DNA of 64,000 bases from Terriglobia bacterium (GCA_020073665.1 JAIQEU010000009.1:62001-126000); one strand, 5' to 3'; positions 2,411 to 41,060 are shown, numbered from the stretch's first letter. Notes: generated from the sequence alone by a model not told the origin. Translations and numbers: made by a program.

Positions 2411-2477
2411 CAGGTAGCGGGACGGAAGCTGCAGGTCGTGCGCCTGTGGTGAGCCGCGAAGCGGCGAAAGAATGAAG

Positions 2478-2497
2478 CCCACGGCGCAAGCCGTGGG
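2478..2497. repeat. 8-bp perfect hairpin with GCAA loop
   Basis: CCCACGGC-GCAA-GCCGTGGG, in the 174-base gap between the HD-like gene and the PrpD gene. It is followed by a CCCGGAAGGGAC segment that resembles the intergenic repeats near 32040 and 40950, so it is more likely a dispersed repeat than a dedicated terminator. Confidence 0.5.
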
Positions 2498-32078: not shown

Positions 32079-32804
32079 CTACTGCGCCTTCTCCAAGTCT
32101 GGTGACAAGTTAATCGCCCCGCTCATGATTTTCATCTTTCGCTGCCACGGCTGGTAGCCGGATTTCTTGATTGCAATCTGATGCTCTCCGGGGGGTAGCT
32201 CGACCATCGAAGGCGTGGTGCCTACGAAACTGCCGTCAATCTCAATATCAGCGCCGGTGGGGTTGGAAGAGACTGATACCTTGCCCACGGCCGCCGGAAC
32301 CTGTGCCGGGGCGGATGCGACTGGAGTTAGTTTTGGAGCGGGTGCTCGAAGTTTGGCCGCGCTACTCGGCCAATCTTTCGTGATGGCCTCGCATGCATCC
32401 TTGACCGAACTGCCCAGAGACATCGTCGAGTGGCTCACAATCGAATCGCCATCCTTGTTGAAGACAGCGACTTTGTTGTCGTGCCGCAGAAATCCTTTGC
32501 CGCCTTCGTGGTCAAGAAGCACGATGTAGTCCGCTTTGTCTTGCTTGTTATTGACGATCACCAGAGGACAGCGCTCGCTGAAGGTCTTAATGATCTCGGC
32601 TGTCTGAGGACGCGCTCCTCCCTTTACGACGCCGGCTGATGCTCCGTTCGCCCCGCCGCTGGCTCCGGAGATTTCCCACGACTGGCTGTCAGTAATAAAG
32701 ACACGAGGCTTCTCATCCGCAGGGCTGCTGCCAGACTTCTCCTGGGCCACGGCGGGAAGAATAGTCAGAAGGCATAAGACGAAGGGCCACAATCCAGATC
32801 GCAT
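32079..32804 (-). CDS. exported PEGA-domain protein
   Basis: 241 residues with a signal peptide (LWPFVLCLLTILPAVAQ) and an AGGAGAG site upstream. The middle part is similar to a periplasmic module found with DUF-type exported proteins of acidobacteria (ISGASGGANGASAGVVKGGARPQTAEIIKTF, KADYIVLLDHEGGKG). The C-terminal ~70 residues form a PEGA domain (GKVSVSSNPTGADIEIDGSFVGTTPSMVELPPGEHQIAIKKSGYQPW), a surface-layer-type beta module that relates to PEGA-containing kinases and lipoproteins. The function is unknown. Confidence 0.82.
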   Translation of the reverse strand: MRSGLWPFVLCLLTILPAVAQEKSGSSPADEKPRVFITDSQSWEISGASGGANGASAGVVKGGARPQTAEIIKTFSERCPLVIVNNKQDKADYIVLLDHEGGKGFLRHDNKVAVFNKDGDSIVSHSTMSLGSSVKDACEAITKDWPSSAAKLRAPAPKLTPVASAPAQVPAAVGKVSVSSNPTGADIEIDGSFVGTTPSMVELPPGEHQIAIKKSGYQPWQRKMKIMSGAINLSPDLEKAQ

Positions 32805-32855
32805 TTTCTCTCCTCTTCTTGAACTATTTTAGGAGGCCCAACTTCTGGTCCCAAA

Positions 32856-32944
32856 CAAAAAGGCCACGGCATAGCCGTGACCCCCTTCACAGTCGAGTCC
32901 CTTGTACTCTTCTCTACAAATCCTGTCCAGGCACTTTCGTGCCA
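32856..32944. repeat. left flanking repeat of the HD islet
   Basis: An ~89-bp element beginning with an A-run and a CCACGGC-ATA-GCCGTG hairpin, then CCCCCTTCACAGTCGA, and ending CACTTTCGTGCC. A related element with the same ordered parts is at 35698-35792. Together they enclose three genes. Confidence 0.7.
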
Positions 32945-32960
32945 GATGAGATTGTGGCGC

Positions 32961-32998
32961 CCCACCCCTCGCAAAAAGCGCGAAGGATCGGCCACCCA
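32961..32998. repeat. second copy of the CCACCC-GCAAAAAGCGCGAAGG hairpin repeat
   Basis: CCCACCCCTCGCAAAAAGCG continuing to the pairing arm GCGAAGG and a final GGCCACCC is almost identical to the copy near 31870-31907. A partial third copy (GGGTGGGCCACCCG) follows near 33020. Confidence 0.7.
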
Positions 32999-33050
32999 AC
33001 AATTGTTTAAGGTTCAAGGGTGGGCCACCCGTCTGCCGGACTGACTGGGA

Positions 33051-33620
33051 CTATGCCGAGTCTTCCTCTATTTCCCTCAGACTGACCTGTCGAGATTTTG
33101 CTATCAGTTCATCAACAATCTCAGTAGCCCAACGCGCTTCAGCCATGGATACATGGGGCTTAAGGTCCACGAGCCTTTGAGCGCGGCGTTCGAAATGCTT
33201 GATACCTTCTCGATCGACAATGAAGAACGCGGTGGCGAGCTTCTCAAGTTCAACCACCCCTCTGTTACCCATCTCATCCGCCACGAACTGCACTTGTTCG
33301 GAGTAGCGAGAGGTGGTGCTCGGGAATCTCTCCTGGAACGTCACGCCAAAGGATGTAGGGACGTATGTTGGCCCGTAGCCAGGCTGCCTCACCGCGAGTT
33401 CTAGCAGTTGATCTGCTTGCATGGACAAGAGCTCATCACGAAGCTCAAATGAGAACGGCCCATGTTTGTAGAGAATGAATTCGAACCCCAAGTCTACACC
33501 GAGCAATTCCTGAAGGAAGTACGTTGCCTTCTGGATGTGGGTTTCCCCACACCAACTGCCTCTTCTAAGCATCTCACGGTTCAGCAGGGTGAGTAGGGCG
33601 AATCTTTGGGTCTGCTTCAT
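33051..33620 (-). CDS. YwgA-like protein, partner of the HD gene
   Basis: 189 residues from ATG 33620; AGGAGG is 9 bases upstream of this ATG and directly abuts the alternative one. The segment HIQKATYFLQELLGVDLGFEFILYKHGPFSFELRDEL recalls the YwgA family of Bacillus, where the gene sits beside the HD enzyme YwfO. Here too it overlaps the end of the upstream HD gene by 47 bases, so both are cotranscribed. The role of YwgA is unknown. Its codon use is less GC-rich than the neighbours. Homology is from motif memory, so moderate. Confidence 0.7.
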   Translation of the reverse strand: MKQTQRFALLTLLNREMLRRGSWCGETHIQKATYFLQELLGVDLGFEFILYKHGPFSFELRDELLSMQADQLLELAVRQPGYGPTYVPTSFGVTFQERFPSTTSRYSEQVQFVADEMGNRGVVELEKLATAFFIVDREGIKHFERRAQRLVDLKPHVSMAEARWATEIVDELIAKSRQVSLREIEEDSA

Positions 33621-34962
33621 GCTTCTCATCCTCCTGTTCTTCTCGTTGCGCCTTTGCCAGGATCGTATCCTGATTGTTGTTGAGCCAACTCTTCGCCTTC
33701 GCCCGTAGTTGAGGGTCGACGAACACATACTCCTGGGATGTCGGCTGCAATTTTGACAACGTCTCTGAGGCGGAAATTGCTGGCTGAATGCGGCCATCAC
33801 GTCCACGCACAGGAAAATCGGGCGCTACATTTTTCACTCTGGGCTTGCTGTAACGTATCGCCTCTGTGCCGAACTCGATTTCTGCAGCGTTCGCTATGGC
33901 AGCACCTGGATCTGAGTGTACCTTAGCATCTTGTGGATTTTTTTCATACAGCACCTTGAAGTGGCTGTGCCTCATGATGCAACTTGCGGGACGATGCCCG
34001 CGGAGGTTTGGAGCGGAGGCCGCTAGGCGCATCGCCGCGTTCACTTCGTCATCCGTAATTCTGAGGTGACCTTCGACATCAGTCGGGAATGTTCCCTCGC
34101 TCAGCAAGCTATCCCGAGACAGCCAAACGCTCAAAAAATCCTTCAGATGGTGATCGTAAATCAACCGAATTGAATGGTAGTACACCTGCGAAAACATGAA
34201 ATAGCGGGCAAGTGCCAACGCTTCGGCTGAATAGATTCCGCCTCCGTTGATACCCAAAGCGGGTTCAGTAGACCCATCGAAACTTGGCAAAATACGAAGC
34301 TCGTCCACTAGCCTGTAATGGTCAAATTTTCCGTAGCCAACGCCTGTGTGGTGCGAATCCCGAAGGAGATAGTCTATGCGGTCTACGCCGAACGCATCCC
34401 CGACAATTATTTCTGACAATATGGCTTCCCATTTTGAGAATCGGAGGTCTTTTGCCTTTCGGGCCCCAACTGCGAGCTTCACGATGTGTTCGGGCTCAAG
34501 TGGTGGCACCATACTCTTCCAAATGGTGCGCATTTCATCGCTCTCGATCAGTAGCCGAGAGAGGCGCTCATGACTCCAACCTTTCGGCAGTAACTCGTCT
34601 TCGGCGGCGTGCGAAAAAGGCAGATGCCCGACGTCGTGACATAGTGCAGCCATCCGCAAGACCTGCTTCCAATAGGAGAGAGCGTCTGGGTTTCCCAAGT
34701 CTGGCAAAAGCTCTCTGACCTCATCCGTCACGTTCGCTGGCTTCGTAATTACCTCGAAGACACGCCCAGCCAGTTCCATGACGCCTAGAGAGTGTTCGAA
34801 TCTCTTGTGAGTTGCCCCAGGGTAGAGCAGGTATGTGAGCGCCAATTGGGTTATGTTTCGAAGGCGCTGAAACGGACGAGAGTCGAGAACCATCTTCTCA
34901 TACCAGTTCAGATGGATGAACACATGAATTGGGTCTCGAATTTCGTGAAAAAGCTTAGTCAT
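33574..34962 (-). CDS. SAMHD1/YwfO-like HD-domain dNTP hydrolase candidate
   Basis: 462 residues. The HD residues are present: RFEHSLGVMELA near residue 57, ALCHDVGHLPFSH with His109-Asp110, and a distal Asp in VDRIDYLLRDSHHTG near 196. This follows SAMHD1 and the bacterial YwfO/EF1143 group, which remove triphosphate from dNTPs; such enzymes can starve phages of nucleotides. A ~100-residue C-terminal tail is outside the usual catalytic core. It sits between a YwgA-like gene (overlapping) and an unknown gene on the same strand. Catalytic activity and an antiviral role are inferred. Confidence 0.83.
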   Translation of the reverse strand: MTKLFHEIRDPIHVFIHLNWYEKMVLDSRPFQRLRNITQLALTYLLYPGATHKRFEHSLGVMELAGRVFEVITKPANVTDEVRELLPDLGNPDALSYWKQVLRMAALCHDVGHLPFSHAAEDELLPKGWSHERLSRLLIESDEMRTIWKSMVPPLEPEHIVKLAVGARKAKDLRFSKWEAILSEIIVGDAFGVDRIDYLLRDSHHTGVGYGKFDHYRLVDELRILPSFDGSTEPALGINGGGIYSAEALALARYFMFSQVYYHSIRLIYDHHLKDFLSVWLSRDSLLSEGTFPTDVEGHLRITDDEVNAAMRLAASAPNLRGHRPASCIMRHSHFKVLYEKNPQDAKVHSDPGAAIANAAEIEFGTEAIRYSKPRVKNVAPDFPVRGRDGRIQPAISASETLSKLQPTSQEYVFVDPQLRAKAKSWLNNNQDTILAKAQREEQEDEKHEADPKIRPTHPAEP

Positions 34963-35014
34963 ACGGGCTCAGCTCCAATATTCGCTTTTTGTTCGCCATT
35001 AGTCAATGGGCGCC

Positions 35015-35659
35015 CTAAGCCTCAGATTCCATTGCGGAAATGAATCGGGAATACAAGCGGGCGGCTGTTTCGCATTTGTGGCGCAGGCGTGAACTGGGCC
35101 GAACCTTCTCCTCTTTTCCCGTTCTCAAGTTCATGCACCAAATGCTCGACGGAGGCTTGTCGAATCTCATCTGCACGATTTCTGACAGCAGGTCTAAGTA
35201 GGCACGCAACTCCTCCGGCTTCCAATCTGCAGCGTGAAGAACAACGAACCGATCTCGACCGTGACTATCTAGTACCTCCAGATGGGGGTGTCCAAATATG
35301 ACAACGGCGTCTGCGAAAGGCACGCCCACGTGCTCATCCCGCAGAAAGTCGTGCTTGAATTTCTGAATCTCTGGGAAGAATGAACCTTCGAAGACTCGGA
35401 AAGCCTCCTCGTTATCGCGCGCTATCTTGTCCCCGCGCTTGCCACTGGTTGCCCGTGCCCGGGAGCTCATCTGCGTAACAATTCGGTTTCTATCCAGTCC
35501 CTTCTTTCTGCAGAACTGAACGATAGCTTCGCGTAGAGGAAGGTAATACTTGAACGCTCGCAATTTCCCTTCCTCTATTTCTCTAAGCAATTTCTCCCAT
35601 TTAGTTGGCGAGGCGTGCACAAGTTTACTAAGCGGAACTATGTGTACGCGCTTGTGCAA
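35015..35659 (-). CDS. unknown protein of the HD islet
   Basis: 214 residues from a TTG (AGGAGG is 4 bases before it). No family is recognised. The protein has a helical, basic N-terminal half (WEKLLREIEEGKLRAFKYYLPLREAIVQFCRKKG) and a central stretch with FADAVVIFGHPHLEVLDSHGRDRFVVLHAADWKPEELRAYLDLLSEIV. It ends with Arg-rich helices. The lower GC content resembles the two genes it precedes on the same strand, suggesting joint arrival. It could be a sensor or nuclease partner, but no motif proves it. Confidence 0.6.
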   Translation of the reverse strand: MHKRVHIVPLSKLVHASPTKWEKLLREIEEGKLRAFKYYLPLREAIVQFCRKKGLDRNRIVTQMSSRARATSGKRGDKIARDNEEAFRVFEGSFFPEIQKFKHDFLRDEHVGVPFADAVVIFGHPHLEVLDSHGRDRFVVLHAADWKPEELRAYLDLLSEIVQMRFDKPPSSIWCMNLRTGKEEKVRPSSRLRHKCETAARLYSRFISAMESEA

Positions 35660-35697
35660 TGATCCTCCTAGTGAGCACTAAGGCTCTTGTACCGGGA

Positions 35698-35792
35698 AAA
35701 TAAAAAGGGGCCGCGGCGTGGCCGTGCCCCCCTCACAGTCGAAATACTTTTTACTAACTGAAGCAAAGCTTGACTAGACCACTTTCGTGCTA
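35698..35792. repeat. right flanking repeat of the HD islet
   Basis: Contains AAAAAGG, a GGCCGCGGCGTGGCCGTG hairpin, CCCCCCTCACAGTCGA, a TACTTT-CTAACTG part and the end CCACTTTCGTGC. The same parts in the same order form the left copy at 32856-32944, with about 60-70% identity. The promoter of the unknown islet gene lies between this repeat and its TTG. Confidence 0.7.
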
Positions 35793-35828
35793 CTAGTTGC
35801 CAAGCACGACACGCGTCAACCCAGCGAT

Positions 35829-36056
35829 CTAACCCCTTGGAGGGAATGGGTCGTTCCCGTAGCTGTTTCTCTCCCGAATTCTTCCCTCTCGGTTGTGGAT
35901 GAAGTGCTCGGTCTCTTGCCTGATTGCTTCACGCCGACCAGTCTCAATTGCTGTTTCCTGGGTGCGATGGTGACTGAGGGTTCTGCCGCCAGCCTCGTTG
36001 ATCCATCCACTCCCACCAGAGTTTGGAACAGTGTGTACACCGTTGTTCTTACTCAT
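35829..36056 (-). CDS. DUF2188 small protein
   Basis: 75 residues from ATG 36056 with GGAGG 7 bases upstream. The C-terminal pattern QETAIETGRREAIRQETEHFIHNREGRIRERNSYGNDPFPPRG is the DUF2188 signature, and the start contains the family's VVP-like VHTVPN-GG-GW. DUF2188 proteins are cytoplasmic, of unknown function, and spread widely, often on mobile DNA. It lies between the HD islet and nrdJ, in a stretch otherwise filled by repeats. Confidence 0.85.
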   Translation of the reverse strand: MSKNNGVHTVPNSGGSGWINEAGGRTLSHHRTQETAIETGRREAIRQETEHFIHNREGRIRERNSYGNDPFPPRG

Positions 36057-36164
36057 CGAACCTCCAAAATCTCGGCGTTTAAAGCCGTCGAGATCAGCTT
36101 CATTCTTCGGCACGGCCGAAGCCGTGCCCTTTCCAAATCCACCGTTGCTGGCGAGATGCCTGCC

Positions 36165-39100
36165 TTACGAGCACCCGCTCGTGCTCCCACAACTCATGCA
36201 CCGATAGCAACTCCCATTTCTCGTCATGATCGACCCGCAGAAGCTACACGTGGGGGCGTCGCCCAGGTCGATGATTCCGGAGAGCGCGTCGGCAGCGTGG
36301 GTGGAACCAGTTTCAAGTTTCGGGTTTCGAGTTTCGAGAGACGAGCCGTTCAGGTCTCCGATGCCCTCCCCTTGCGGGAGCGCGGCCGGCTTCATGCGCA
36401 GGTTCTCGAACAGCATTTGCTGCTGGCCGCTCAGGAAGCGCAGGTGCAGCCAGCGGAAGATGTAGTCCATGATCGACTTGGCGTAGCCGATGTCGGGATT
36501 GTTGGTCCAGCCGCTGGGCTCGAAGCGGGTGTGCTCGAATTTTTCGCACAGCAGTTTCAGCGGGACGCCGTGTTGCAGCGCGATCGAGACTGCGCAGGCG
36601 AAGCTGTCCATCAGGCCGCTGACCGTCGATCCTTCTTTGGCCATGGTGATGAAGATTTCGCCCGGAGTCTGGTCGCGATACAGGCCGACGGTAATGTAGC
36701 CTTCGTGTCCGCCGACGTTGAACTTGTGGGTGATGGACGCGCGCTCTTGTTCCAACTTGTGGCGCACCGCGCGCGGCGGGCCGTTCAGGTTTTCTTCCTC
36801 GCGCGACGCGGACACGGCTGTACGAGCATCTTCTTTCGTGGACATCGCGGTCTTGGTGCCGGCGGCGCTCAGCGGCTGGCTCTTCTTGCAGCCGTCGCGG
36901 TAAATTGCCACCGCCTTCAGCCCCAGCTTCCAGGCCTGCAGATAGGCTTCCATGATGTCTTCGACCGACGCGTTCTCGGGCAGGTTGACGGTCTTCGAAA
37001 TCGCGCCCGAGATAAACGGCTGCGTGGCGGCCATCATCCGCAGATGCCCCATGAAGTTGATGGAACGCGTCCCCTTCGAGGGCTTGAACGAGCAATCAAA
37101 CACCGCCAGATGCTCGTCTTTCACATCCGGCGCGCCTTCAATCGTCCCGGTCGCGTCAATGTAGCTGACAATCTTGTCGGCCTCATCGTGCGAGTATCCC
37201 AGCTTGAACAAAGCGGTAGGCACGGTATTGTTGACAATCTTAATCATCCCGCCACCCACTAGCTTCTTGTACTTAATCAGCGCCAGGTCCGGCTCGATCC
37301 CGGTAGTGTCGCAATCCATCATGAAGCCAATGGTGCCTGTAGGGGCTAACACTGTTACCTGGGAGTTGCGGTAGCCGTGCTTTTCGCCGTGGGCCAGGGC
37401 TTCGTCCCAGCATTGTTTGCTGGCTTCATAAACCGCCGTGGGAACGTTGTTCTTGTTGATGTTATTGACGCTGGCGCGGTGCATGCGGATGACGTCCAGG
37501 AACGGCTCGCGATTGATGTACCAGCCGGGGCAGGCGGCGCCGGGAGTTACTTTCTCTCCGAGATTGTTCTCAGCCAGGCCTTTTCTGGTGGGCTCGGTAA
37601 TGGGGACAAGCGGCTCGCAGAGTTCGGCGATCTTTGACGACTGCAGATACGCCTGACCGCACATGATTGCGGTTACACAGGCAGCATAGTCGCGTCCGGC
37701 GTCGGAGTCGTACGGGAGGCCCGCGGCCATCAGCAGAGCGCCCAGGTTGGCGTAGCCAAGGCCCAGCGGACGGTAATCGTGCGAGTTCTTGGCGATCATC
37801 TCGGTGGGATATCCGGCGTTGTCGACCAGGATTTCCTGCGCGGTGATGACCACGTCTACAGCGTGGCGATAGGCTTCGACGTCAAACGTCCCATTGGGAG
37901 CGAACTTCAGCAGATTCAGGCTGGCCAGGTTGCAGGCCGAGTCGTCCAGGAACATGTACTCGCTGCACGGGTTCGAGGCGTTGATGCGGGCCGTGTTTTT
38001 CGAAGTGTGCCAGCGGTTCACCGTGGTGTCGAACTGCATGCCGGGATCGCCGCACTGCCAGGTGGCCTCGGAGATGTTCTTCAGCAGATCTTTGGCTTTG
38101 TAAGTGGTAACTACGCTGCCGTCGCGAATGGATTTAGTCGAGAAATCAGTGTCGCGGACCACCGCGTACATGAAGTCGTCGGTGACGCGCACGGAGTTGT
38201 TGGCGTTCTGAAAGAAGATGGAGCTGTAGGCTTCGGAGTCGGGGCTGGAGCCGTCGTATCCAGCGGCCACCAGGGTGTGCGCCTTGGCTTCTTCTTTGGC
38301 TTTGCATTCGATGAAGTCAACGATATCGGGATGGTCGATGTTGAGGATGACCATCTTGGCGGCGCGGCGGGTCTTGCCTCCGGACTTGATGACGCCGGCG
38401 AAGGCGTCAAAACCTTTCATGAAGCTGAGCGGGCCGGACGCGGTTCCGCCGCCGGACAAGCCTTCGGTCGACGAACGCAGCGGCGACAGATTGGTGCCGG
38501 TGCCGCTGCCCCACTTGAACAGCATGCCTTCGGTCTTGGCCAGGGTGAGGATGGAGTCGAGCGAATCCTTCACCGAGTTGATGAAGCAGGCCGAACACTG
38601 CGGCGTCTTGTAGCCGGTCACGCTGAATTCGACGCGGCCCACGGCCGGATTCCAGTGCCAGTTTTGCGCGTCGGAGTTGGGCTCGATGCGATCGCAGCCC
38701 ACGTTGAACCAGACCGGCGAATTGAATGCCGCGTACTGGCGGACGAGGATGTGCACCAACTCGTCGTGGAACGTGGCACCGTCCTCGGGGCTGCGGAAGT
38801 AGCCTTGGGCTAGACCCCAGTCGCGAATGGTTTCGGCGACGCGACTTACCAACTGGCGCACGCCGGTCTCGCGCTCGGGCGTGTCTAGCGTGCCGTGCAG
38901 ATATTTGCTGGCCACGATATTGGTGGCGGTCATGGACCAGTCTTTGGGAACTTCGACGTCCTTCTGCTCGAAGATCACGTTGCCCTGGGCGTCGGTGATC
39001 TGAGCGATGCGCTTTTCCCATTCGACCTGGTCATAGGGGCTCTCGCCGGGCTTGGTGAAGAAGCGGCGGAAGGCGAGGCCGGGAGCCTTCTTCTTGCTGA

Positions 39101-39176
39101 CGGACGTAGTCGTCAACGGAGTGACGGCCGTTTGGGGGGGCGTTTGGACGTCGGTTTTTGCGCTCACGTCGGACAT
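36165..39176 (-). CDS. nrdJ: adenosylcobalamin-dependent (class II) ribonucleotide reductase
   Basis: 1003 residues. Class II features are FNSPVWFN near 150, ACFINSVKDSLDSILTLAKTEG, NPCSEYMFLDDSACNLASLNLL near residue 405 with the catalytic Cys, LAPTGTIGFMMDCDTTG, and a C-terminal Cys pair block (CSFCGSIMTRNGSCYRCMSCG) that returns electrons to the active site. The enzyme makes deoxyribonucleotides using adenosylcobalamin as the radical source. Long for NrdJ, with an ~100-residue N-terminal extension and C-terminal ribbon. Preceded after 67 bases by a small gene (39244-39780) on the same strand; a NrdR-box-like site lies upstream of both. Confidence 0.95.
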   Translation of the reverse strand: MSDVSAKTDVQTPPQTAVTPLTTTSVSKKKAPGLAFRRFFTKPGESPYDQVEWEKRIAQITDAQGNVIFEQKDVEVPKDWSMTATNIVASKYLHGTLDTPERETGVRQLVSRVAETIRDWGLAQGYFRSPEDGATFHDELVHILVRQYAAFNSPVWFNVGCDRIEPNSDAQNWHWNPAVGRVEFSVTGYKTPQCSACFINSVKDSLDSILTLAKTEGMLFKWGSGTGTNLSPLRSSTEGLSGGGTASGPLSFMKGFDAFAGVIKSGGKTRRAAKMVILNIDHPDIVDFIECKAKEEAKAHTLVAAGYDGSSPDSEAYSSIFFQNANNSVRVTDDFMYAVVRDTDFSTKSIRDGSVVTTYKAKDLLKNISEATWQCGDPGMQFDTTVNRWHTSKNTARINASNPCSEYMFLDDSACNLASLNLLKFAPNGTFDVEAYRHAVDVVITAQEILVDNAGYPTEMIAKNSHDYRPLGLGYANLGALLMAAGLPYDSDAGRDYAACVTAIMCGQAYLQSSKIAELCEPLVPITEPTRKGLAENNLGEKVTPGAACPGWYINREPFLDVIRMHRASVNNINKNNVPTAVYEASKQCWDEALAHGEKHGYRNSQVTVLAPTGTIGFMMDCDTTGIEPDLALIKYKKLVGGGMIKIVNNTVPTALFKLGYSHDEADKIVSYIDATGTIEGAPDVKDEHLAVFDCSFKPSKGTRSINFMGHLRMMAATQPFISGAISKTVNLPENASVEDIMEAYLQAWKLGLKAVAIYRDGCKKSQPLSAAGTKTAMSTKEDARTAVSASREEENLNGPPRAVRHKLEQERASITHKFNVGGHEGYITVGLYRDQTPGEIFITMAKEGSTVSGLMDSFACAVSIALQHGVPLKLLCEKFEHTRFEPSGWTNNPDIGYAKSIMDYIFRWLHLRFLSGQQQMLFENLRMKPAALPQGEGIGDLNGSSLETRNPKLETGSTHAADALSGIIDLGDAPTCSFCGSIMTRNGSCYRCMSCGSTSGCS

Positions 39177-40471: not shown

Positions 40472-41060
40472 CCACCCTTGGGGGAGGGAGGTTGAGGTTT
40501 TCGGGCTTACGATTTTTGACTGGTGAGTTCGCAAAGTAGTTGATCCCGATTGGTGGTCTCGGGACTGCTGAATTCTGTCTCGAGGGTGACGACGAATCTA
40601 CGCGGCGGATGATGCAGGGTCAATTCCATAAGATTGGTGCAGTGAGGAAATTCCGGCCTACTGATTTGGCGGCGGAATACGGATTAAGCCGATGGTTAAG
40701 GAAGTGTGGCTAAGCCGCGCTAGGACGCAGTTTCGGTTGCAGGGACCGAGAAAGGGTATTACCCAGCGGCGGATTTTCCACAGCGGGCGCACAGGAAATG
40801 CAGGAAAGGCGGTAGCGAGAAGCGAGCGCCTAGGGCTCAGGAGACGATGAGTTTCGCAAGAGCTTTAACCACCGAGCCACCGAGCCAGAAAGAGAGCTAT
40901 GCGGAATCGTTTGGGCATGATTACTCCTAACGGGATTGTACCCGTTAGCCGTCCCTCCGGGACTTGGTCACACTTTCTCAACTTCCCAGCGCTGAAGCGC
41001 TGGGCTACTATCGCAACGCCCCTCCGGGGCTCAGTCCGAAGAACCGAATTGCACACGCCC
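40472..41060. repeat. 589-base gap with palindromic repeats and DnaA-box-like 9-mer
   Basis: No gene is visible. A TTTTCCACA 9-mer (one mismatch to the DnaA box) is at 40774-40782; another lies at 40146-40154. From 40925 to 41040 are palindromes AACGGG-ATTGTA-CCCGTT, a CCCAGCGCT-GA-AGCGCTGGG 9-bp hairpin (40985-41004) and CCCCTCCGGGG, which resemble the repeats near 32000. Confidence 0.6.

What the first reader, a model, noticed from the sequence alone, without database searches (positions are those of the whole stretch)
32856..35792. Three-gene HD-nucleotidase islet bracketed by related ~90-bp repeats
Left (32856-32944) and right (35698-35792) elements have the same parts in the same order: A-run, a GGC-GCCGTG hairpin, CCCCC-TCACAGTCGA and a final CACTTTCGTGC. 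They enclose a YwgA-like gene, a SAMHD1/YwfO-like HD gene and an unknown gene, all in one direction and of lower GC. The HD plus YwgA pairing is also seen in Bacillus (from memory). dNTP-removing HD enzymes can be antiviral, so this could be a small mobile or defence module of undescribed type.
Basis: partly seen in the sequence, partly recalled or inferred. Interest (0 to 1): 0.74.

Follow-up and report, generated by a model that had tools for sequence, protein, structure and literature searches.

The report
Shared leader element of acidobacterial defence operons
The two "repeats" are copies of one 95-base switch-like leader (promoter followed at once by a transcription stop signal) that sits in front of many different, mostly defence-like, operons in one family of soil bacteria; here it heads an operon with a probable nucleotide-destroying enzyme.

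Summary
Observation confirmed: two related ~95-bp elements in the same orientation flank a three-gene minus-strand operon (unknown protein, SAMHD1-like HD enzyme, YwgA-like protein). Relative G049 has the requested "empty site": nrdJ, one element, PEGA gene. The bracket reading is replaced. Covariance models find 51 matches (about 47 convincing) in 31 genomes, all in one family, 1-4 per genome. Each has an inverted repeat GCAC-N4-GTG, a sigma70-like -35/-10, then CGAC..GAGGGGG and an intrinsic terminator with strong covariation, usually followed within 60 nt by a start codon. So an element is a per-operon leader, not the end of a mobile unit. Of 29 element-led operons scanned, 21 hit PADLOC defence models against 2 of 20 upstream neighbours. 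Several sites (3' of nrdJ above all) carry the element with different cargo in different genomes. HD has all catalytic residues; YwgA folds like the DarG antitoxin domain; the HD-YwgA pair recurs without the element; the unknown protein is rare. Most likely: a trans-regulated promoter-attenuator leader gating costly defence operons. Regulation and antiphage activity are inferred, untested. No Rfam family matches; limited literature searches found no description.

The parts
35698..35794 (-). Right element (R): leader of the UNK-HD-YwgA operon: inverted repeat GCAC-GAAA-GTG, -35-like TAGTCA, 17 nt, -10-like TAAAAA, CGACTGTGAGGGGGG, terminator hairpin and T-run
   Evidence: CM score 105 bits R1 / 88.5 bits R2; promoter scoring; closest to the single G049 element (score 56 vs 43 to L)
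35015..35659 (-). Unknown protein (UNK), 214 aa, TTG start preceded by GGAGG, starts 39 nt after the R model end
   Evidence: one homologue found, 52% identity in G098; no Pfam/NCBIfam/PADLOC hit; AF2 model poor, pLDDT 41
33574..34962 (-). HD-domain predicted dNTP triphosphohydrolase, 462 aa; H57, H109, D110, H118, E121, H131, D194 all present
   Evidence: Pfam HD and HD_assoc_2; PDB relatives 2hek, 2o6i and SAMHD1; invariant residues in A8
33051..33620 (-). YwgA-like protein, 189 aa, same fold as the C-terminal antitoxin domain of DarG; overlaps the HD gene's 3' end
   Evidence: PADLOC DarG 4.7e-9, NCBIfam DarG 4.6e-7, below cut-off, AF2 pLDDT 93.7, Foldseek 7yk3 E 2.4e-5, TM 0.69-0.70
32851..32946 (-). 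Left element (L): leader of the PEGA gene
   Evidence: CM 89.4 bits; same position before the PEGA orthologue in G049 and G694
32079..32804 (-). PEGA-domain protein, 241 aa, with an N-terminal hydrophobic stretch like a signal peptide; follows an element in G000, G049 and G694
   Evidence: Pfam PF08308; 72% identical orthologue next to nrdJ in G049
36165..39176 (-). nrdJ, class II ribonucleotide reductase: anchor of the insertion hotspot
   Evidence: Pfam; upstream of an element in 7 genomes
35829..36113 (-). DUF2188 small ORF (PADLOC PDC-S16) between nrdJ and R; not found in the G049 locus; relation to the islet unclear

Best explanation
The two repeats are copies of a ~95-bp, lineage-restricted leader element. 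It consists of (1) an inverted repeat GCAC-N4-GTG(C), centred at about -42 from the predicted start, the classical place for a dimeric transcription activator; (2) a sigma70-like -35/-10 with ~17-nt spacing; (3) a conserved first transcribed stretch CGAC..GAGGGGG; (4) an intrinsic terminator about 10 nt into the transcript; then usually, within 5-60 nt, the start codon of an operon, most often a defence-like one. With no room for another promoter in most cases, transcription starting in the element must pass the terminator, so the element works as a promoter-attenuator that keeps costly or toxic operons low and can raise them together under one trans-acting signal. Here copy R drives UNK-HD-YwgA: the HD protein is a predicted dNTP triphosphohydrolase effector (as in dGTPase and Clover defence) and the DarG-CTD-like YwgA protein is its likely partner or restrainer. 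Copy L drives the neighbouring PEGA gene. The operons sit at hotspots, above all 3' of nrdJ, where cargo differs between genomes while the element stays. Shown by sequence: element family, anatomy, covariation, cargo enrichment, hotspot behaviour, catalytic residues, YwgA fold. Inferred: promoter activity, activator, regulated read-through, dNTPase activity, antiphage effect.
For: 51 CM matches (A6) in 31 genomes, none outside the family in a 339-genome class sample. Covariation: 10 pairs with double changes against 4.3 in shuffles, 95% of cells paired against 49-62% when slid. Element identity 0.76 within genus g29 against ~0.5 in flanks, so sharp edges. Nearly fixed distance from inverted repeat to -10. 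23 of 23 inverted-repeat-plus-(-10) matches also carry the G-run of the terminator. In 21 operons with a clear start codon the distance from model end is median 25, at most 59 nt. Defence enrichment: 21/29 element-led operons PADLOC-positive (E<=1e-5) against 2/20 upstream genes (both a GlgB-type model), Fisher p = 2.4e-5; counting the three PEGA cases as negative 21/32, p = 1.2e-4. Hotspots: 45 element pairs share upstream genes, only 8 of these also share downstream genes; the nrdJ cluster spans 7 genomes. HD. YwgA; YwgA lies directly behind HD in the closest HD loci, in families where no element was found.
Against: No expression data: start site, promoter strength and read-through are predicted. 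No conserved antiterminator hairpin was found (3 of 48 could form the one tested), so the mode of attenuation is unknown and the terminator may only insulate. For copy L a promoter-like site lies after the terminator (32854-32826). PEGA, the cargo behind the leader in three genomes, is not defence-like, and 8 of 29 operons had no PADLOC hit. PADLOC holds generic ATPase and methylase models, and more than one gene was scanned in some element-led operons. Some elements (for example L146, L174, L176) have no clear same-strand gene behind them.
Confidence: 0.7

Rival explanations
1. The repeats are recombination sites (attC/att-like) of a cassette system: defence cassettes are inserted and exchanged between copies of the element, and promoter/terminator features are incidental.
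For: Tandem copies in G000, G694, G821 and G833; the same chromosomal site with different cargo in different genomes; empty site with one copy in G049; high similarity of elements, spacer included, across different cargo in genus g29.
Against: Most copies are single; no integron integrase over the curated cut-off in 29 element-bearing genomes; no recombinase seen beside the elements; the element lies 5' of cargo with fixed promoter spacing and a U-run terminator, whereas attC lies 3' of its gene; arm changes preserve a terminator hairpin.
Confidence: 0.12
2. The element is only a constitutive promoter with an insulating terminator or leaky stop; there is no dedicated regulator, and the elements spread as convenient promoter parts by homologous recombination.
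For: No regulator found; no conserved antiterminator; insulation is useful at sites of changing cargo; sharp edges and high identity suggest copying.
Against: The terminator is downstream of the -10 and upstream of the ribosome-binding site, so it stops its own promoter's transcripts; an inverted repeat at about -42 is conserved in three sequence sub-types.
Confidence: 0.3
3. One reading: a self-contained small mobile module of three genes delimited by its own terminal direct repeats.
For: Two direct elements bracket the three genes; module absent from relatives; GC somewhat lower.
Against: An element precedes PEGA also in genomes without the module (G049, G694), and 51 matches elsewhere mostly stand alone in front of unrelated operons.
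Confidence: 0.04
4. The HD-YwgA pair is a housekeeping dNTP-pool enzyme with a regulator, placed beside nrdJ for dNTP balance and not for defence.
For: Adjacent to ribonucleotide reductase; HD-YwgA pairs are widespread, and Bacillus ywfO-ywgA is such a pair (own knowledge).
Against: Sporadic in the class (16/250 genomes); nrdJ is a hotspot with changing cargo such as Sir2 and PHP-ATPase genes; the leader is shared with defence-like operons.
Confidence: 0.2

Closest known systems
Clover (CloA dGTPase + CloB; PMC12265719) and anti-phage dGTPase
   Same: HD dNTPase effector with the H..HD..D and HE catalytic residues, next to a possible regulatory protein
   Different: The HD protein is of the HD_assoc_2 type, far below the dGTPase family cut-offs (32 vs 152 bits); the partner is a DarG-CTD-like protein, not a nucleotidyltransferase; a third unknown gene
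DarTG toxin-antitoxin (DarG C-terminal domain, PDB 7yk3)
   Same: YwgA-like protein has the DarG C-terminal fold (TM 0.69-0.70)
   Different: No macrodomain and no DarT in the operon; partner is an HD enzyme
JUMPstart/ops leader of RfaH operons and LoaP leaders (own knowledge)
   Same: One conserved short leader placed before many different operons, with transcription elongation as the likely control point
   Different: Includes promoter and terminator in 95 bp; precedes defence-like rather than polysaccharide operons; no NusG paralogue link shown
Integron attC cassettes carrying defence genes (own knowledge)
   Same: Repeated element with exchangeable defence cargo, sometimes in tandem
   Different: 5' of the gene, promoter and intrinsic terminator, no integron integrase
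Operators of BrxR/CapW-type regulators of defence operons (own knowledge)
   Same: Inverted repeat upstream of defence operons
   Different: Here the element is shared by unrelated systems and no regulator gene was seen to travel with the cargo

Membership tests
SAMHD1/YwfO-like HD dNTPases | HD domain with metal ligands H..HD..D and catalytic His/Glu | tested here: met
   H57, H109-D110, H118, E121, H131, D194 invariant; PDB relatives 2hek, 2o6i, SAMHD1
SAMHD1/YwfO-like HD dNTPases | dNTP hydrolysis | not testable with these tools
   needs an enzyme assay
dGTPase / Clover CloA | score over the curated dGTPase model cut-off | tested here: not met
   TIGR01353 32 vs 152 bits; NF041026 16 vs 400
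Clover | adjacent Pol-beta nucleotidyltransferase CloB | tested here: not met
   neighbours are UNK (no family) and YwgA/DarG-CTD-like
DarTG | DarG with macrodomain plus DarT next door | tested here: not met
   only the C-terminal domain fold is present; NCBIfam DarG 29 vs 250 bits
Integron attC | integron integrase in the genome | tested here: not met
   TIGR02249: 0 of 29 over cut-off, general tyrosine recombinases only
Any Rfam RNA family | gathering score | tested here: not met
   nothing at the elements
Promoter-attenuator leader | promoter followed by an intrinsic terminator before the first gene | tested here: met
   sequence anatomy, spacing and covariation in 51 matches; activity itself not tested
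Promoter-attenuator leader | alternative antiterminator structure | tested here: not met
   3 of 48 could form the hairpin tested; protein-mediated control not excluded

The most novel reading that the evidence does not exclude
A single trans-acting regulator acts through one shared promoter-attenuator leader to switch on a whole lineage-specific, exchangeable set of unrelated defence operons during infection: an immune regulon whose members are recruited by acquiring the leader, possibly sensing phage interference with host transcription termination.
Probability: 0.3. Interest if true: 0.92.

Novelty: new variant of a known kind. Interest (0 to 1): 0.78.

Why it matters
Defence systems are usually thought to bring their own regulators, and how cells coordinate many costly systems is open. 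A leader shared by Sir2, OLD, PARIS-like, ubiquitin-like, R-M, dNTPase and deaminase operons gives a concrete handle: find what binds it and when its terminator is passed. It also works as a search key: genes behind the element without known function (UNK, the 368-aa nuclease-like family, the 'ILQANPWLSRFYAD' family and others) become ranked candidates for new defence genes.

Tried and rejected
Dispersed acidobacterial repeats such as Acido-Lenti-1: two copies in the window but not at the elements. Simple pattern search of the own genome at 2 mismatches: background level (36 vs 34 control), so pattern counts alone are useless. Relatives of UNK in plasmids, phages, viral contigs and GTDB genomes: none apart from G098. 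AF2 of UNK: pLDDT 41, not interpreted. Integron integrase and NusG paralogue tests: no specific link. Alternative antiterminator hairpin: not conserved. PEGA orthologues in other genomes: no element. Literature searches for YwgA, DarG with YwgA, attenuation of defence operons and acidobacterial leaders gave nothing relevant except Clover.

Full report
Observation. The two elements are real and homologous. Read on the coding (minus) strand, each runs GCAC-GAAA-GTG(C), ~24 nt, GTAxAA, CGACTGTGAnGGGG, hairpin, T-run. The combined exact pattern occurs only here in the 5.4-Mb genome and once more among 299 genomes of the class. That third place, in G049, is decisive: nrdJ (90% identical), one element, then the PEGA gene (72% identical), with no three-gene module between. 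The left element is thus the leader of the PEGA gene, and the right one leads UNK-HD-YwgA. The right copy is more similar to the G049 element than the left copy is.

What the element is. A covariance model from the three copies (R1), then from 21 copies (R2), found 34 of 150 family genomes with matches at E<=0.1 and 43 of 329 at E<=1e-3. 51 matches at E<=1e-4 in 31 genomes were aligned; about four (L172, L175, L177, L178) are weak, L172 probably false. In a sample of 339 class genomes all matches were in the same family. The alignment shows an inverted repeat GCAC-N4-GTG, a -35-like hexamer (TTGGCA, TGGACA, TAGACA in the best cases), about 17 nt, a -10-like GTAxAA or GATAAT, then CGAC..GAGGGGG and a G+C-rich hairpin ending in CCC and T-runs. 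The hairpin is supported by compensatory change: 10 pairs with double changes (shuffles 4.3), 51 cells (17), 95% paired cells against 49-62% when slid. Distances from the repeat to the -10 and from the -10 to the G-run are nearly fixed. If transcription starts 6-8 nt after the -10 (established promoter knowledge), the repeat is centred near -42 and the terminator begins about 10 nt into the RNA. In 21 operons with a clear start codon, the start lies a median of 25 nt and at most 59 nt behind the model end, so most operons have no room for a second promoter; copy L is an exception with a promoter-like site behind the terminator.

What it leads. Genes behind the element include PHP/SMC ATPases like Ppl, AriA/PtuA/OLD-type ATPases with an AriB-like partner, a Z1 helicase with a methylase, a DruM-like cytosine methylase, Sir2-like proteins, E1-E2 plus JAB, dCMP/dCTP deaminase-like proteins, a dGTPase (behind one of the weak matches, L178), a nuclease-like family found behind three elements, and several PADLOC candidate families. 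21 of 29 scanned operons had a PADLOC hit at E<=1e-5; among 20 genes on the other side of the same elements only two did, both an alpha-amylase-like gene hitting a GlgB model (Fisher p = 2.4e-5, or 1.2e-4 with the three PEGA cases as negatives). Limits: PADLOC contains generic ATPases and methylases, and sometimes two or three genes were scanned per element-led operon; a count of first genes only gave p = 5.6e-5, partly hand-assigned.

Where it sits. 45 pairs of elements share an upstream gene but only 8 of those share downstream genes. The largest cluster is the 3' side of nrdJ, in G000, G049, G677, G684, G694, G723 and G874, with different cargo: UNK-HD-YwgA, PEGA, PHP-ATPase, a small unlabelled operon, Sir2; in G723 no clear cargo follows. 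Tandem copies occur in G000, G694, G821 and G833. Element sequence stands out from its flanks (identity 0.76 vs 0.50 in genus g29). The picture is exchange of cargo at fixed sites with the leader kept; the mechanism of exchange is not shown, and integron integrases were not found.

The operon itself. The HD protein keeps all metal-binding and catalytic residues and its nearest solved relatives include 2hek, 2o6i and SAMHD1. It is not a dGTPase/Clover family member by curated cut-offs. The YwgA-like protein was modelled with pLDDT 93.7 and has one significant structural match, the DarG C-terminal domain of the DarTG complex. The HD-YwgA pair is a recurrent unit: the six closest HD matches, and several distant ones, have YwgA directly behind, without UNK, in families where no element was found. 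UNK had one homologue (G098), beside a DUF7002 gene. By analogy with Clover (PMC12265719), where an HD dNTPase is restrained by its partner, the likely role is dNTP depletion under control of YwgA; this step is inference.

How it works. Shown: shared leader, anatomy, covariation, link to defence-like cargo, hotspots, intact catalytic residues, YwgA fold. Inferred: the leader is an activator-dependent promoter whose transcripts are stopped at once unless read-through is allowed, which keeps costly operons low. No antiterminator hairpin is conserved, so control by a protein, by the state of RNA polymerase during infection, or simple leakiness remain open. No expression or phage data exist here.

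Novelty. Leaders shared by many operons (JUMPstart/ops) and defence operons with their own operators are known; I found no described leader common to unrelated defence systems, neither in Rfam nor in limited literature searches. I rate it a new variant of a known kind (promoter-attenuator leaders).

Noticed in passing
L037:10080-13507 (G098): The only UNK homologue lies near a DUF7002 gene and an adenylosuccinate-synthetase/kinase gene that appears to be split by a transposase-like insertion.
   Followed up: partly
L155:5860-6966, L161:4440-5546, L171:3494-4600: A 368-aa family with a type II restriction-enzyme match recurs directly behind the element in three genus-g29 genomes.
   Followed up: partly
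L135:2048-2830, L137:2522-3349, L151:3267-4043: An unlabelled second-gene family (motif around 'ILQANPWLSRFYAD') recurs in element-led operons with different first genes.
   Followed up: no
window 35829-36113: DUF2188 / PADLOC PDC-S16 small ORF between nrdJ and element R, not found in the G049 locus.
   Followed up: partly
window 2452-2497 and 40985-41031: Two Acido-Lenti-1 RNAs (RF01687).
   Followed up: no
L088, L089 upstream of the HD gene: HD-YwgA pairs preceded by a short BrnA/CopG-like ORF, suggesting toxin-antitoxin-like regulation there.
   Followed up: no
L141:3406-4182 and L149:3078-3854: Two related unlabelled ~258-aa proteins downstream of elements in different genera (G365, G684).
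   Followed up: no
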